Origin: Crambe crambe
Lineage: Eukaryota; Porifera; Demospongiae; Poecilosclerida; Crambeidae
Length of the DNA: 64,000 bases
Assembly: GCA_963924555.1 (NCBI GenBank)
Contig: OZ004589.1
Coordinates: 5,828,001-5,892,000 of the forward strand
Reading direction: 5' to 3'
Each line of letters begins with the position of its first letter. Within the stretch, counting starts at the first letter, position 1. This document shows, in pieces, positions 3,850-60,100 of this stretch. The position numbers and the translations under genes were made by a program. The notes under the pieces were generated by a model. The model was not told the DNA's origin and searched no databases. It saw only the letters and a list, made by a program, of their open reading frames with translations.

Positions 3850-4440
3850 ACAGGGTTTTCCCCATAGTGTTGTATCAAGTGGTTATTACAGGGTTTTCCT
3901 CACAGTATTTGTACTGTCTTATCAAGTGGTTATTACAGGGTTTCCTCACAGTATTTGTACTGTCTTATCAAGTGGTTATTACAGGGTTTTCCTCACAATA
4001 TTTGTACTGTCTTATCAAGTGGTTATTACAGGGTTTTCCTCAGTATTTGTACTGTCTTATCAAGTGGTTATTACAGGGTTTTCCTCAGTATTTGTACTGT
4101 CTTATCAAGTGGTTCTTACAGGGTTTTCCTCACAGTATTTGTACTGTCTTATCAAGTGGTTCTTACAGGGTTTCCTCACAGTATTTGTACTGTCTTATCA
4201 AGTGGTTATTACAGGGTTTTCCTCACAATATTTGTACTGTCTTATCAAGTGGTTATTACAGGGTTTTCCTCAGTATTTGTACTGTCTTATCAAGTAGTTA
4301 TTACAGGGTTTTCCTCAGTATTTGTACTGTCTTATCAAGTGGTTCTTACAGGGTTTTCCTCACAGTATTTGTACTGTCTCATCAAGTGGTTATTACAGGG
4401 TTTTCCTCACAGTATTTGTACTGTCTTATCAAGTGGTTAG
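3850..4440. repeat. Minisatellite, about 13 units of 44-47 bp
   Basis: A unit containing TATCAAGTGGTTATTACAGG followed by GTTTTCCTCACAGTATTTG is repeated head to tail about 13 times. Units vary by presence or absence of a CA pair and by TTATTAC versus TTCTTAC. All three frames stay open because of the repeat, so the long open frames here are not evidence of protein. There are no unique spacers, so it is not a CRISPR. Confidence 0.95.
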
Positions 4441-4770: not shown

Positions 4771-4957
4771 TCTAAAATGCCCCAGGCACTAGCATATGTA
4801 CAGTATGTGTATGCATAATACAGTATATAGTGAACACTGGGACCAGTTATTTTCCTTAATGGAGGGGGTTCCACTCTTCAGAGGTTCACTTTGTATTGGC
4901 AGTATATATGGTTTGGTTCCTTGGAAAATGTCCCTAATAGGGTAGGGAGGTTTTTTG

Positions 4958-6861
4958 CACTGTGTCCTGAGTTCACTATAGTCAGGTCAATTCTGTCAGA
5001 TTTTTCATGAAATTGAAAAAAACTGGACCAAAGTGTATAAACTTGCACAGTGATTTATCATTGTATACTGAAGCTTTTTGGAAGGGGTTCCATTTATTTC
5101 TTCTCACAGGATCAGAAATATGAAGTTTCCAACATTTTGTATCTTCCATTGCGATATGCACGAAAATTTTATTTTTCGCGCGACCAATACAATGTATGGT
5201 GAAAACGCGCGAATATTACAAAGCGCGAAAATATATTAGGCGGTTTGCAGGTGTCAAAGTGATTGATGGTCCTGCGATTGTACATTCATTGTCCACCTCC
5301 ACTGTTAAAACATTTGACCAATATGCTGATGAAATATTTGTACCGTGGACTGTAGACGCACTTCACAACTGCGATAGGATCGACATTGTTTGGGATCTTT
5401 ACAAAATGTCCAGCCTCAAAGAATCAACCAGGCAGAAGAGAGGCAAAGGTATTAGAAGAAAAGTTAGTGGACAAGCCAAGCTACCAACTAATTTTCCAGA
5501 CTTTCTTCGTGATGCAAAGAACAAAGAAGAACTTTTTAGTTTCCTTTCTAGCAGAGCATCCACCCACATTTACCCTGTTGGGAAAGAAGTTTATATCACA
5601 TCAGGTATGATACTAATTGTAGATTTGCAAATTACAGTCATGAATATTATGTTCACTTAATTTACAGGTTCATCTGTAGTCTGCCAAGGAACCAGTAGAA
5701 CTATGATGGAATGTGATCATGAAGAAGCAGACACCAGAATCTGTGTACATATAATGGATGCATTGGATAATGGAGCAAAGAAAGTCTATGTAAGAACTGT
5801 AGATACAGACGTCATTGTTGTACTTGTGGGAGTTTTCAGTGAACTACAGAAGAAATGCACAGATATTGATGTATGGGTAGCCTTTGGCATGGGTAGGCAC
5901 TTTCACTTCTACCACGTTAATACCATCTGCCAGCATCTTGGTGAACGGAAATCCAAAGCCTTATATACCTTATTTTCATGCTTTCACCGGCTGTGATACG
6001 AATTCTCAATTTCTTGGTAAAGGGAAAAAATCAGCATGGACATGCTGGAAATCGCTAGATGCTGCTACTGAAGCATTTCTTCATGCTTTTGAAAATCCAT
6101 TTCAGTTATTGGAGATATCTTCACCCACATTTACTCTGCTTGAGAACTTTACATGTATCCTGTATGATAAAACTACCTGTATTTGTCATGTGAATGAATT
6201 GAGACAAGAGCTTTTTTCCAAGAGAGCAAAATTGATGGAAAATATTCCACCAACACAGGTATTGCTATACCCCTAATCATAGTCTTTGTGTTTGTTCACC
6301 ATGTTTTATTATTTTAGGCTGCATTAGTTCAGCATTGTAATAGAGCTCTTTACCAGGTATCAATATGGACTACCTCTCTGAGAGCACAACAGAATTGCCC
6401 ATTGCCTGATGGATTTGGCTGGAAGGTGGAAGACAATAAATGGAAACCAGTGTGGACAGATTTACCAGAAGTAGCAAAAGCCTGCCAAGAACTCTTGAAG
6501 TGTGGCTGTAAGGCTCATCCTCTGTGTACCAGAAGATGCAAGTGCAGAGATGCAGGTCTCTCTTGCACAGCATTGCGTAATTGTGGGGGACATTGTGACA
6601 TGTGAACAATATAATTATTATTTTCGCTTTTTAAAATTTTGCTATATAAAGTCTATTGATCGCGAAAATTTAAAAGATCGCGCATATCGCAAAACAATTG
6701 ATAAACTTCCTCTGTGCCTCATTTCTCACCAAAAAAGCTAAGCAGGTGGCACCCCTTCCAAATTGCTTTAGTATAGGCTAGTAAATAAGTTTTATGCTTT
6801 GGTCCAGAAATTTTTGATCAAAATCAGAATTGACCTGACTACTAAGAGAGGTCCCACTGTA
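4958..6861 (+). mobile_element. Candidate DNA transposon with ~200-bp inverted repeats around a CXC-domain gene
   Basis: Sequence left of the gene (about 4958-5195) is matched, inverted, by sequence right of it (about 6640-6861). Shared blocks include AGTCAGGTCAATTCTG, CTGGACCAAAG, GGAAGGGGT and TTGCGATATGC plus a CG-rich inner segment. The arms are diverged but colinear over about 200 bp. The outermost right end reads GGTCCCACTGT; the left end is less certain, and I could not fix a target duplication. The only gene inside is the three-exon CXC-domain gene, so it is the obvious transposase or cargo candidate. Ends are approximate. Confidence 0.6.
5196..6605 (+). CDS. Tesmin/CXC-tailed protein, metazoan family of unknown function (three exons, one frameshift)
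   Basis: Exons 5196-5604, 5668-6258 and 6318-6605 join with matching phases (GT-AG at every junction). The middle part has CDHEEADTRIC and RTVDTDVIVVLVG, an acidic pattern reminiscent of FEN1/Asteroid-like or PIN-like nucleases, then FHAFTGCDTNSQFLGKGKK. The C-terminus has clustered cysteines (CGCKAHPLCTRRCKCRDAG, then CGGHC) like the Tesmin/TSO1 CXC DNA-binding fold. I recognise this as a family common in cnidarian and sponge genomes, usually longer at the N-terminus. Here the conserved part begins after a TTTGCAG acceptor-like site near 5250, so this copy is probably 5'-truncated. A single-base frame change near 5965 interrupts exon 2. The flanking inverted repeats suggest it is carried by a transposon. 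Confidence 0.65.
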
Positions 6862-6964
6862 CAACTGCTCCAGTTGTAGGTGGCTAGACTTATCTAAGTG
6901 CTTTGTGGTAAGCATTACAGCTTCACTTACATAACATATGAGTGTGGGTTTTGATGCTACACAC

Positions 6965-8207: not shown

Positions 8208-8454
8208 AGTCTGGCATCACTAGTCTCGCGCGGGCCAGACTCTGAGTCTGGCCCGCGCGAGACTAAGCTTTTCTAGCCCTAGCCCTCCCCCCAAAAAAGA
8301 AGAAAAGCTGGGCTGGCGACGCCAGACTAGTAGGCTGAGGACAAGAAGCAAGGTTGAGATGTGCCATCACTTATCTGTACAGTTGCTAGCCAAGGTAAAG
8401 TGATGTAGTGTCTGGCATAGCACTAGCTGTCGGTGGGCGGTGCTATGCCAGACT
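8208..8454. repeat. AGTCTGGC-type foldback sequences
   Basis: At 8221-8242 and 8244-8265 a 22-bp CG-rich arm (TAGTCTCGCGCGGGCCAGAC, then TC) is repeated perfectly inverted with a 1-nt spacer, an almost ideal cruciform. At about 8411-8454, GTCTGGCATAGCAC pairs with GTGCTATGCCAGAC around a short loop. Both carry the AGTCTGGC/GCCAGACT ends of the MULE-like family described elsewhere in the window. Confidence 0.85.
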
Positions 8455-11306: not shown

Positions 11307-12152
11307 TCAGGCAGAAGCAGCAGCTTTGACATTGCAGGACTTGCATCCACCATGGACAGTAGGACTCCAAGTGATATGGTAGCCAACTGGCTGAACCAGT
11401 CGTGTTGGTCCAAACAGTCCTCCAAAGATGAATGGCTCATATGTCTTCTCATATGTCTTAAGGTGCCAAAGGTAGCACTTAGGTGAAGATGGACTGGAGG
11501 AGGAATCTGAAGTCGAAGGCTTCTCTTCTTCAACATTTGCTTTCTTTGATTTCACTTCCTCCCCATCTTCATTTGCCGCCTTGGAGTCAGTTTCACTCTC
11601 TCCCTGATCAGGTGGTGTCTGATCACCTTCTGTCTGACTCTCTCCCTCTCCTTTATCTTCTGAAGGAGTGGATTGTTTGTAGTCCTCTGCAGTGGGTGAT
11701 GTAGATGGTTTCTTATCCTCAGGAGTGGACACACAGAGAGATTCCAAGAGATTAACCAATTCTTGCGTCTCTCGTAAATGTCTGTCGAAGCTTGACCATC
11801 TACATCCAAATGGCCTCCAAGATGGTTCCAGAATATGATCCCACAAGGAGACCCTCTGTCGTTGTGGCTTTGTCTGTCCAGTCTCCTTCCTTTCGCGACG
11901 GGAGGCAATTTGAAGTTTCCAAACATAGTCACTGGGGAGCTCAGAGAGAACTTCTTGGAACTCTTCCTCAGTAGAGAGAGTGATGAGGTCTCCATCAGAG
12001 TCGTGATACTGCAAGACGAGGTTGGTGGTCTCTTTTGCTGCTTCGGGGAAGAGAACAGCTATTTTCTCTTTGAGCTGGTCAAAAGTGAACTCTCCAGGAG
12101 TCACCTGGAACCTACGGGCTTCGAAACCATCATTAACTTTGAAGTACACCAT
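11307..12152 (-). CDS. PB1-domain protein, copy 1
   Basis: The frame of 281 residues starts at Met 12152 (MVYFKVNDGFEARRFQV). Residues 1-80 form a PB1 domain: KVNDG and FEARRF at the start, then QYHDSDGDLITL and EEEFQEVL, the acidic OPCA-type segment used for PB1-PB1 dimerisation in p62/SQSTM1, NBR1 and kinases. Residues 95-135 (SLWDHILEPSWRPFG) resemble the loose N-terminal region of small heat-shock proteins, a weak impression. The rest is an acidic Ser/Thr/Pro-rich linker and a short hydrophobic tail. No zinc finger or UBA follows, so it is not a full p62. Heat-shock-like motifs lie about 180-240 bp upstream. It may act as a stress-induced scaffold; that is inference. Confidence 0.75.
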   Translation of the reverse strand: MVYFKVNDGFEARRFQVTPGEFTFDQLKEKIAVLFPEAAKETTNLVLQYHDSDGDLITLSTEEEFQEVLSELPSDYVWKLQIASRRERKETGQTKPQRQRVSLWDHILEPSWRPFGCRWSSFDRHLRETQELVNLLESLCVSTPEDKKPSTSPTAEDYKQSTPSEDKGEGESQTEGDQTPPDQGESETDSKAANEDGEEVKSKKANVEEEKPSTSDSSSSPSSPKCYLWHLKTYEKTYEPFIFGGLFGPTRLVQPVGYHITWSPTVHGGCKSCNVKAAASA

Positions 12153-12261
12153 TGTGAAGGTCTTGGGTTATAAATGAAGTTTGATGCTTGATTATTCTGA
12201 GGACTTTAGCTATTTCTTTGGCTCTTTGCTCTTCAGGGTTGATTGGAGTGAGTTAGAAGCT

Positions 12262-23743: not shown

Positions 23744-24484
23744 TCATGTTGGTCCAAACAGTCCTCCAAAGATGAATGGTTCGTATGTCTTAAGGTGCCA
23801 AAGGTAGCATTTAGGTGAAGATGGACTGGAGGAGGAATCTGAAGTCGAAGGCTTCTCTTCTTCAACATTTGCTTTCTTTGATTTCACTTCCTCCCCATCT
23901 TCATTTGCTGCCATGGAGTCAGTTTCACTCTCTCCCTGATCAGGTGGTGTCTGATCACCTTCTGTCTGACTCTCTCCCTCTCCTTTATCCTTTGAAGGAG
24001 TGGATTGCTTGTTGTCCTCTGCAGTGGGTGATGTAGATGGTTTCTTATCCTCAGGAGTGGACATGTAGAGAGATTCCATGAGATTAACCAATTCGTGCGT
24101 CTCTCGTAAATGTCTGTCGAAGCTTGACCATCTACATCCAAATGGCCTCCAAGATGGTTCCAGAATATGATCCCACAAGGAGACCCTCTGTCGTTGCGGC
24201 TTTGTCTGTCTAGTCTCCTTCCTTTCACGATGGGAGGCAATTCGAAGTTTCCAAACGTAGTCACTGGGGAGCTCAGATAGAGCTTCTTGGAACTCTTCAT
24301 CAGTGGAGAGAGTGATGAGGTCTCCATCAGAGTCATGATACTGCAAGACGAGGTTGGTGGTCTCCTTTGCTGCTTTGGGGAAGAGAACAGCTATTTTCTC
24401 TTTGAGCTGGTCAAAAGTGAACTCTCTAGGAGTCACCTGGAACCTACGGGCTTCGAAACCATCATTAACTTTGAAGTACACCAT
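23744..24484 (-). CDS. PB1-domain protein, copy 2
   Basis: Met at 24484 opens a 246-residue frame nearly the same as copy 1 over the PB1 domain, the SLWDHILEPSWRPFG block and the acidic linker. Differences are mostly conservative (for example EEEFQEVL to DEEFQEAL). It ends earlier: copy 1 has a 12-bp repeat (KTYEKTYE versus KTYE), and copy 2 reaches a stop right after GGLFGPT where copy 1 reads on. Both copies keep an intact PB1 domain, so both may be functional. Confidence 0.75.
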   Translation of the reverse strand: MVYFKVNDGFEARRFQVTPREFTFDQLKEKIAVLFPKAAKETTNLVLQYHDSDGDLITLSTDEEFQEALSELPSDYVWKLRIASHRERKETRQTKPQRQRVSLWDHILEPSWRPFGCRWSSFDRHLRETHELVNLMESLYMSTPEDKKPSTSPTAEDNKQSTPSKDKGEGESQTEGDQTPPDQGESETDSMAANEDGEEVKSKKANVEEEKPSTSDSSSSPSSPKCYLWHLKTYEPFIFGGLFGPT

Positions 24485-24599
24485 TGTGAAGGTCTTGGGT
24501 TAACTTATTAACTTGTAAGTAAAGAATTATTCTGAGGATCTCAATGTTGATTTGAATGAGCGAAAGGCTATCTTTCAATACTTGAAGTATGAATGATCC

Positions 24600-57150: not shown

Positions 57151-60100
57151 TGATTACTGAACATATTATGTATTTGTGATTGGTATGATAACAATGACTG
57201 TGCATAGTGCATTGTGGAAGTCAGCAAGTGTGATGTGTGAGGTCTGGAGATACCACACTGCTGTGAGACATTGCCAAGGTGTCCTTATATACGTAGTGAA
57301 TGCTGTGGACTTCCAATGGCCCAGGATTTGTATGAGGGAGTCGCTAAGGCCCGCCCATGCTGCTGTTGTGGCTGCACCTATACGGAAGCTGTGGCCACTG
57401 AATTTGGAATCGTCTACCCCTATTAACCTTAGTGCCTCCCGCAGTGCTTTGACGAGCCGGGGTCTTGAGAGTGTTGAGCCGTCGTGGAAGAGAAAGAGAG
57501 GGCCGGATGATTGTTGACGGATGGCCAGATACCCCAACATTGCTGTGACTGGGCAGAGGATGGTCCCAGTAGTGCCTAAATGCAAAATTGCTCCAACCCC
57601 GAAGGTGGCGGTCTTGCTCCATTTTAAATGGACTGCCAAATGAGCTGGAGCCACATGTGAGTCCACAAACACATCTTCTGGTGAAAGCATGTCTGGTGTG
57701 AAGGCCTCCATGGATGGGCAGGTAAACTCCCCCACGCGCAGGAACCCCAAAAAGCCTAGGCAGAACGCTGCCCACAACATTGTCCTGTCGAAGTCTGGGG
57801 GTTGCTGTGACCATGCCTGGTGGATTCTATGGAGGAAGTTGGGGGTGATAGGCAGGCGGCTGCATTGGGATTTCAAACGACCCATCCTCCACGCACCCTT
57901 CAAAACATAGTCCAGGCGGGGAAAGGAAGACAGAGCTGGGTCTGGCAAGTTACTAGTTATCTGCAGGTGGTGGACGGCACTCAAGTATGACCGAATGGAT
58001 TGGTAACTAAGTGATGAAGAGACAAGAAAAGCTATGACTCTACATAGGATGTGGGTAAGGGGGTGAAATGGAAATGTGCACAGAATGCAAGATAGCGCTT
58101 CTTGCCTGTGGCATATGAGTTCAGTGTGGATTTGGCGACACCTCTCTCAAAGAGCGTAGAAACAATTGTGTCCAGCTCGGAGATCCCCAGTCTGGTCTGA
58201 TGGTCACCAGTAACTTGAGTAGTGAAGGAGGCACTAACTGTGGCATCTGGGGGGTGACAGAGAAAAATAGGGACAACTTATTGTGGGATAATGCATCTGC
58301 TGCTACGTTCTGTACCCCAGAGACATTTTTTGCTGAGTATTGAAAGTGAAAGTAGGCACTATAAAAAGAGAAACAACATAGCAGATGCATCAGCAGCGTG
58401 TTCTTGGATGCCCTTGTTTGAAGGACAGATACCACCACAATATTATCTGAGTGGAAACAAATGTGTTTTCCCGACCAATACCTTCCCCACATGGCTGCCG
58501 CTGCTACCACAGGTATGAGCTCTTTGGCCGAAATTTCTATGCCAGTCCAGGTGTCTGGCCAGTGCATCTGGAACCAACCAAGTCCACATGCCATCGCTCC
58601 ACCCGTAGCGAAGGGTTCGGGAGAGGGAAGAAGGAAGATCCATTCCAGCCTTGGAGAAAGCATTTCCACCAAGCTAGGTCTGCCCTGGCGCCAATACTGA
58701 GCCGGATGTAATGGTGGGGAGCTCTAGCCACGTGTAGCAGGCTGAATAGGCGATGCAAGAATGTGCGACCAGGCTGCACGACTGATGCAGCGTGAGAGAG
58801 ATGTCCAAGGAGAGATTCCAACTCCTTCCTTTTGCATACCTTTTTTATGGACCATGTCCAAAGGAGTGCTTGGAGACGCCTCACTTTCTCTGGTGGCAGG
58901 CGTAGCTCAAAGGATCCCGTGTCCACCAATATCCCCAAGAAGGTGACACATGTCGAAGGGCCCTGTGAGGCCACTGGGACACCGAGGCTCTGAAGAGGGA
59001 GAGTGCGAATAACAATGCCTCTGCGCCCTCTCTTGATTTTGGTGCGCCCATAAAGAGGAAATCATCGAGATAGTGGATCTGATGGCGGATTCCTGAACAG
59101 TGCAAGGCCCAAGCGAGCATATCGGCCACAGTGGAGAAGATCTTAGGGGCTGACCGGAGCCCAAAGGGGACTATATATGTCTCCCCCTCCCATGAAATGG
59201 CCAGCAGATGATGATCCTGTGGGTGGACCGGGATGATGCGGTAAGCATTCCTTAGGTCTATCTTTACCAGCTCTGCCCTAACACCCAGCTGCAGTACATG
59301 CTGGACTACATCGTCCACCTTGGAGTAGGTAATTGACGACAGCTTGCGGGAAATGCCATCATTCACACTGCAGTCCCATGGGGATGACAAATCCACAATC
59401 ATGCGCCACTTGTCAACCTGGTGGGACTTCGGAACCAAGCCTATTAGGCTAACATGGACCAAGGGAAGGAGTGATTCCTTTAGCGGCCCCACTAGTCGTC
59501 CAGCCTCCACTTCTGCCTTGATATGCTCACTGACTACCCGGGGATTTGCTGATGCCGATGGGTGGTTCTTCCGAGCAGAGCGAAGGGTGGAGCCCTCCTG
59601 TTATAACCAATATGGAATCCTGAGGACAGGCCAGCCTGGATGTAGGATGTGAATGTGAATCACTGATCTGGATGGGATCTGCGTCCAGTTGCTCAATACC
59701 ACTGGGGTCGGACAGGTTGGCCACTGTATTGATTTACACCCCTTACAGTCCTCAAGCTCCAGCAGGTCGCATATTGGCCAGAAGCAATATTTTCCGCTCC
59801 AAATGACACTGTGGTCATCGGTACCTGGGATTTCAGGTGTGGGTCCTGACCTGAGGGAGGAAAGCGGGATCGTTAAATATTCCCCTGCCCTGCCTGCCAC
59901 CCTGTACCCACAATTATGAATTAAACTACCCCTATCCCGTTAAGCTAGCTAGCCACTCCCCAGACACTAGCTAACCACGAAGCTTACATGTAATAATAAT
60001 TATACACTTAAAAGAACTAAATCAATCAACCAATTAAATCAAGCAGTCACTCATAATAATAATGATTAGAATAAATAACAATCCAAGTAACATCGGGTAG

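What the first reader, a model, noticed from the sequence alone, without database searches (positions are those of the whole stretch)
4958..6861. A Tesmin/CXC-tailed gene of unknown function is enclosed by ~200-bp inverted repeats
Seen: colinear inverted blocks flank the gene on both sides and nothing else lies inside. Established: CXC domains bind DNA. As far as I recall, proteins of this layout (EADTR...TVDTD...FHAFTGCDT...CXC) are many-copy and mostly annotated as uncharacterised in cnidarians and sponges. Inference: the gene may be the transposase or nuclease of an undescribed DNA transposon group with PIN/FEN-like acidic residues, or a host gene caught by one. This is my best candidate for an undescribed system in the window.
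Basis: partly seen in the sequence, partly recalled or inferred. Interest (0 to 1): 0.8.

Follow-up and report, generated by a model that had tools for sequence, protein, structure and literature searches.

The report
Non-autonomous Academ-type DNA transposon remnant
A short jumping-DNA element that carries only the broken tail end of a longer transposon gene; it has clearly moved in this genome, but it probably belongs to a kind of transposon that is already described.

Summary
Window 4979-6841 (1863 bp) is a DNA transposon with ends TAGTCAGGTCAATTCTG...CAGAATTGACCTGACTA, long imperfect inverted arms and a 3-bp target duplication (CTA). Three empty copies of the target sequence elsewhere in the genome lack exactly the element plus one CTA. 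The 14-base end occurs 14+14 times in 143 Mb, 26 of 28 as convergent pairs; 11 of 14 elements read show a 3-bp duplication. The gene inside is not a complete transposase. It is the C-terminal part (FEN/XPG-like acidic residues plus CXC tail) of a protein that in longer relatives (frames of 433+1052, 1600 and 1846 aa) also has N-terminal sequence and a middle domain, related to Pfam DUF6589 in part of them. All three copies share a frame-breaking insertion. A sister family of 11 copies has the same ends, keeps the N-terminal part instead, has no nuclease match, and also moved. So the element is most likely a non-autonomous, internally deleted derivative moved in trans. Nuclease-like part, 3-bp duplication and size of relatives fit the AcademX lineage of Academ; no Academ reference protein could be compared. 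The FEN/XPG relation rests on motifs and sub-threshold PDB matches, not on a significant score.

The parts
4979..6841 (+). Whole element, 1863 bp, non-autonomous DNA transposon (family 1 copy)
   Evidence: Similarity with L010 (99.1%) and L011 (98.7%) ends at these bases; empty sites
4976..4978 (.). Target-site duplication, left copy (CTA)
6842..6844 (.). Target-site duplication, right copy (CTA)
4979..5235 (+). Left terminal inverted arm; outer 17 bp perfect (4979-4995)
6619..6841 (-). Right terminal inverted arm; outer 17 bp perfect (6825-6841)
5251..5604 (+). First coding piece of the gene remnant: VIDG...VWD...KRGKG part of the FEN/XPG-like region; left limit is a guess at a possible splice acceptor
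5605..5667 (+). Putative GT-AG intron, 63 nt, with an in-frame stop; inferred
5668..5960 (+). Second coding piece: HEEADTR and VDTD motifs
5960..5970 (+). Frame-breaking small insertion shared by all three family 1 copies, absent from the older relative L012
5971..6258 (+). Third coding piece: FHAFTGCDT...GKKSAW
6259..6317 (+). Putative GT-AG intron, 59 nt; inferred
   Evidence: exon limits from relatives
6318..6605 (+). Last exon with the CXC-like cysteine tail
   Evidence: no Pfam CXC match for this exon itself, sub-cut-off PF03638 matches in relatives

Best explanation
The element is an internally deleted, non-autonomous cut-and-paste DNA transposon, most likely of the AcademX lineage (Academ superfamily). 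A transposase supplied in trans by a longer relative recognises the TAGTCAGG...CCTGACTA ends, excises the element and inserts it at a 3-bp staggered cut, which becomes the 3-bp target duplication. Shown: ends, duplication, empty sites, multiple copies, deletion structure, broken gene. Inferred: mobilisation in trans, that the middle domain of the relatives is the RNase H-like (DDD/E) catalytic part, that the FEN/XPG-like region processes DNA during transposition, and that the CXC tail helps to bind DNA.
For: Ends and copies. 3-bp duplication in 11 of 14 elements, 4-bp match in 0 of 14, shifted controls 0, 0, 0, 1, 1, 1 of 14. Empty sites for the window copy with exactly one CTA (L143, L144, L145) and one empty site (L140) for the insertion shared by L010 and L011. 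Family 2 (11 copies, L013-L023): same ends, N-terminal part next to the CXC exon, no nuclease match. Longer relative L029 (4922 bp) has its own inverted ends TAGTGGGG...CCCCACTA, duplication TGA/TGA and frames of 433 and 1052 aa. Open frames of 1600 and 1846 aa with the same order of parts; DUF6589 at E 1.1e-16 in the 1846-aa one. AcademX: nuclease, 3 or 4 bp duplications (PMC10045372, passage); Academ listed among DDD/E superfamilies (PMC9587614, passage); mean length of curated Academ elements in a bivalve study 5565 bp (PMC10294476, passage) against 4922 and 5430 bp here.
Against: No Academ reference protein could be compared. L010 and L011 (one original site) show TAT/TAG and L015 shows TTC/AAT; the longer L030 shows AGT/ATA and L032 CCA/AAG. 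No longer element with the very ends TAGTCAGGTCAATT was found; the closest longer relative (L012, 88%) shows neither end, so the source of transposase is not identified. Ends of L047 and L048 were not determined. No significant FEN/XPG match in Pfam, PDB or profile comparisons.
Confidence: 0.8

Rival explanations
1. The short element is itself the complete transposon: the nuclease-CXC protein alone is a new kind of transposase.
For: The gene remnant lies alone between the repeats and the ends are precise. In L010 a second small change brings the frame back after about 22 altered residues, so most of the nuclease part is open there apart from the putative intron.
Against: All three copies share a frame-breaking insertion, and two of them, L010 included, have a stop in the last exon; family 2 moved with the same ends without a nuclease match; longer relatives contain further conserved domains.
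Confidence: 0.03
2. A host DNA-repair gene fragment was captured by an unrelated transposon.
For: Nuclease-like residues and a CXC-like tail resemble host domains.
Against: The same fragment is the C-terminal part of long proteins of the transposon family, one of which (L029) has its own inverted ends and duplication. The XPG_I search of the genome rang at three loci only, none of them one of these elements.
Confidence: 0.03
3. It is an internally deleted element of a different superfamily that also makes 3-bp duplications (Zator, PIF/Harbinger, CMC), or of one not yet named.
For: A 3-bp duplication alone does not decide; Zator also makes 3 bp (PMC10045372, passage). Membership in Academ was not tested by sequence.
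Against: Nuclease plus 3-4 bp duplication is the reported AcademX combination; no nuclease is recalled for Zator or Harbinger.
Confidence: 0.17

Closest known systems
AcademX lineage of the Academ superfamily (Kapitonov and Jurka 2010; Kojima 2020; both recalled, Kojima 2020 not held)
   Same: Nuclease-encoding DNA transposon with 3 or 4 bp target duplication (PMC10045372, passage); terminal inverted repeats; relatives of about 5 kb; XPG nuclease and a Cys8 zinc finger are recalled for Academ
   Different: The window element is 1.9 kb, keeps only the C-terminal part and is broken; membership not tested by sequence
Pfam DUF6589 (PF20231) proteins
   Same: Middle domain of longer relatives: L048 1.1e-16, L132 1.1e-16, L133 6.5e-16, L134 5.6e-16, L136 3.1e-11, all over the cut-off
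   Different: Not in the window element; no match in L029 or L047; L030 0.002, under the cut-off; 2 of 3 members of alignment A3, best 0.0013
FEN1/EXO1/XPG nucleases
   Same: Order and pair spacing of acidic residues (D, D, E-x-D, D-x-D, D) and a following GK motif; the few PDB hits of the wider profiles are all Exonuclease 1
   Different: No significant score; the first acidic residue is D or E; profile comparison with archaeal FEN1 no better than reversed controls

Membership tests
DNA transposon with terminal inverted repeats | Fixed ends in unrelated flanks, target duplication, empty sites | tested here: met
AcademX (Academ) | Target duplication of 3 or 4 bp | tested here: met
   3 bp in 11 of 14 elements; rule from PMC10045372 (passage)
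AcademX (Academ) | DDD/E transposase domain in the autonomous element | tested here: inconclusive
   Middle domain of 8 relatives with invariant D, D and D-x-A-x-E columns and DUF6589 matches; no comparison with a known DDD/E; absent from the window element
AcademX (Academ) | XPG-type nuclease in the same protein | tested here: inconclusive
   Six acidic positions invariant among 12 sequences; PDB hits only to Exonuclease 1 but at E 0.17-0.43; narrower profile hits HflX; hhalign not above control
AcademX (Academ) | Sequence relation to Academ reference proteins | not testable with these tools
   No Repbase; Kojima 2020 and Yuan and Wessler 2011 not held
FEN/XPG nuclease superfamily | PIN-like fold with H3TH | not testable with these tools
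   Model of a window piece without alignment failed (pLDDT 37.1); the tool's text does not admit sequences fetched by the fetch from genomes
Autonomous transposon | Intact transposase gene in the element | tested here: not met
Tesmin/TSO1-like CXC domain (PF03638) | Pfam match over cut-off | tested here: not met
   Window exon: no match. L132 0.0022, L048 0.0047, L136 0.0087, L133 0.069, L134 0.85, all under the cut-off; none in L029, L030, L047, L137. The name CXC is kept as a description of the cysteine pattern

The most novel reading that the evidence does not exclude
Three deletion derivatives keep different inner parts (family 1: nuclease; family 2: N-terminus; L032: N-terminal pieces and a longer C-terminal stretch), yet all keep the DNA of the CXC exon next to the right end. 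The last few hundred bases may therefore be a cis-acting end needed for mobilisation, possibly bound by the CXC tail of the full-length transposase, so that the DNA coding for the transposase's tail is part of its own recognition site.
Probability: 0.12. Interest if true: 0.45.

Novelty: new member of a known kind. Interest (0 to 1): 0.3.

Why it matters
This genome also offers exact empty sites and long open frames of the same family, which would make the role of the nuclease-like part in Academ-type transposition testable.

Tried and rejected
Structure prediction of a window piece (235 aa, single sequence) failed, mean pLDDT 37.1; no fold search was run on it. hhalign of the nuclease profile against an archaeal FEN1 profile (65 reading frames from 80 loci) gave 20.5 and, with 14 sequences, 21.5; with one side reversed the scores were 21.9 and 19.9; for the L048 lineage alone 13.7 against 16.8 and 12.4 reversed: no evidence. 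Pfam scans of window exons gave only matches under the cut-offs, best SRCR 0.0064. Pattern-based searches for relatives in viral contigs and prokaryote genomes, and tblastn in phages, found none. A profile of seven sequences (A2) hit only GTPase HflX in the PDB, E 0.16. Literature listings: DUF6589 in no held paper; Tesmin plus transposon terms, 15 of 18 papers listed, none relevant by title or abstract; Academ plus sponge, one listing on mollusc piRNAs, not opened; Academ terms. PMC3706591 was searched for Academ: none. Passages only were seen of PMC10799480, PMC10045372, PMC9587614 and PMC10294476.

Full report
What is there. Two further copies of the whole element were found (L010 and L011, both on C1); they are 99.1% and 98.7% identical to it and 99.6% to each other, and similarity stops at the same outermost bases, TAGTCAGG and CCTGACTA. 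L010 and L011 share flanks, so I count them as one insertion.

Ends. The 14-base end TAGTCAGGTCAATT occurs 14 times forward and 14 times reverse; the control (pattern read backwards) 1+1 times. 26 of these 28 form 13 convergent pairs, 1550 to 2048 bp from end to end; two are single (C3:3926524, C15:5477360). A fourteenth complete element, L014, has one changed base near each end. L032 on C15 has the exact end on one side and a diverged TAGTCAGGTCC end on the other, and no duplication (CCA/AAG). The inverted arms extend inwards over 257 and 223 bp.

Target duplication. Of 14 elements read, 11 have identical 3 bp on both sides and 0 have 4; chance is 0.018 per element from flank composition; shifted controls give 0, 0, 0, 1, 1, 1 of 14. 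Exceptions: L010 and L011 (TAT/TAG) and L015 (TTC/AAT). The window copy sits in a dispersed repeat; three empty relatives of it on C18 (L143, L144, L145) read GAGTTCACTAAGAG where the window reads GAGTTCACTA-element-CTAAGAG, an exact 3-bp duplication. For L010/L011 an empty site on C2 (L140) shows one extra base only; loss of a TA unit from a TA run at the right end would explain it (inference).

The gene. The window remnant is colinear with residues 647-1045 of the 1052-aa frame of L029. L029 (C8) is a 4922-bp element with ends TAGTGGGG...CCCCACTA, duplication TGA/TGA and overlapping stop-to-stop frames of 433 and 1052 aa. L030 (C6, 5430 bp, ends TAGTCCAGC...GCTGGACTA) has the same parts in several frames and no matching duplication (AGT/ATA). 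L012 (C3), 88% identical over 1392 bp, keeps remnants of the middle domain upstream, but the exact end motifs are not in the 8.8 kb read. Open frames of 1600 aa (L047) and 1846 aa (L048) show the same order by eye: Cys-rich N-terminus, middle domain, nuclease-like part, cysteine tail; their element ends were not found among the inverted repeats listed. The DUF6589 model has 110 matches in the genome and the nuclease piece 115; rows are matches, not elements, and lower bounds.

Two complementary derivatives. Family 1 (3 copies) lacks what precedes the nuclease. Family 2 (11 copies; L013-L020 are 98.8-99.5% identical to each other, pairs with L021, L022 or L023 90.9-98.7%) keeps N-terminal sequence next to the CXC exon and has no nuclease match. 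Both look dead as genes. Family 1 shares a small insertion that breaks the frame and is absent from L012; in L010 a second change restores the downstream frame after about 22 altered residues, L011 has a further stop, and L010 and L011 both have a stop in the last exon. Every family 2 copy has 2 to 16 stops in the stretches aligned to the L029 frames; some may lie in introns or be counted twice in overlapping alignments. Two families with different contents moved with the same ends and the same duplication length, so what they share is the ends, and the transposase probably came from elsewhere. The source element was not found.

Is the nuclease FEN-like? In an alignment of 12 sequences, 19-55% identical to the first, 15 columns are invariant; six are acidic: D55, E171, D173, D194, D196, D264. 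Order and pair spacing match D86, E158, E160, D179, D181 and D233 of FEN1 (numbering recalled). A profile of that alignment has three matches up to E 10 among 177,635 PDB sequences, all Exonuclease 1 (E 0.40-0.43; no stretch passes on its own), aligned at VFD and GCDYLSSLRGIG; a six-sequence profile has four, all Exonuclease 1 (E 0.17-0.18). A host FEN1 query finds 37 FEN/XPG/GEN/EXO1 sequences in that library (and three unrelated ones), a base rate of about 2 in 10,000. Against: a narrower profile hits only HflX; hhalign against archaeal FEN1 is no better than reversed controls; no Pfam XPG match; the XPG_I search of the genome rang only at three other loci. I take the FEN relation as likely, not shown.

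Comparison with the known. In passages seen, AcademX makes 3 or 4 bp duplications and encodes a nuclease, AcademH 9 or 10 bp and a helicase (PMC10045372); Academ is listed among DDD/E superfamilies (PMC9587614); curated Academ elements of a bivalve study average 5565 bp (PMC10294476). That an XPG nuclease and a Cys8 zinc finger mark the nuclease lineage is recalled. The fit is good, but no Academ protein was available, so membership stays probable.

Mechanism. A longer relative makes the protein; the middle domain probably cuts and joins strands, with target cuts 3 bp apart; the FEN-like part may trim flaps at excision or integration; the cysteine tail probably binds DNA. Only the outcome (ends, duplication, empty sites) is shown here.

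Verdict. A real, well-resolved transposon, ordinary in kind. Interest is modest.

Noticed in passing
window 3873-4439: Tandem array of a 47-bp unit, about 12 copies, with a 230-bp higher-order period, left of the element.
   Followed up: no
window 8221-8265: Perfect 22-nt inverted repeat with 1 nt between the arms.
   Followed up: no
window 11307-12167 and 23744-24499: Two closely similar minus-strand frames with MVYFKVNDGFEARRFQV, by eye like a PB1-type (p62-like) domain; about 12.4 kb apart.
   Followed up: no
window 57166-58146 and 58881-59600: Minus-strand frames that by eye resemble a tyrosine recombinase (GHSFRIGAAT) and a reverse transcriptase piece (YLDDFLFMG), as in DIRS-like elements.
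   Followed up: no
window 4859-4978 and 6842-6961: The insertion target belongs to a dispersed repeat: 44 matches listed for the joined flanks, several of the best on contig C18.
   Followed up: partly
L048 (C1:3932000-3938500); C1:4965887, C16:2823138, C3:5534080: A second lineage with nearly equal scores at four places (frames of 1846, 962, 891, 869 aa), which suggests recent copies; only L048 was read.
   Followed up: partly
G000:C15:5475517-5477373 (L032 3018-4874): A further deleted 1857-bp element with related ends, N-terminal pieces and the CXC exon, without a 3-bp duplication.
   Followed up: partly
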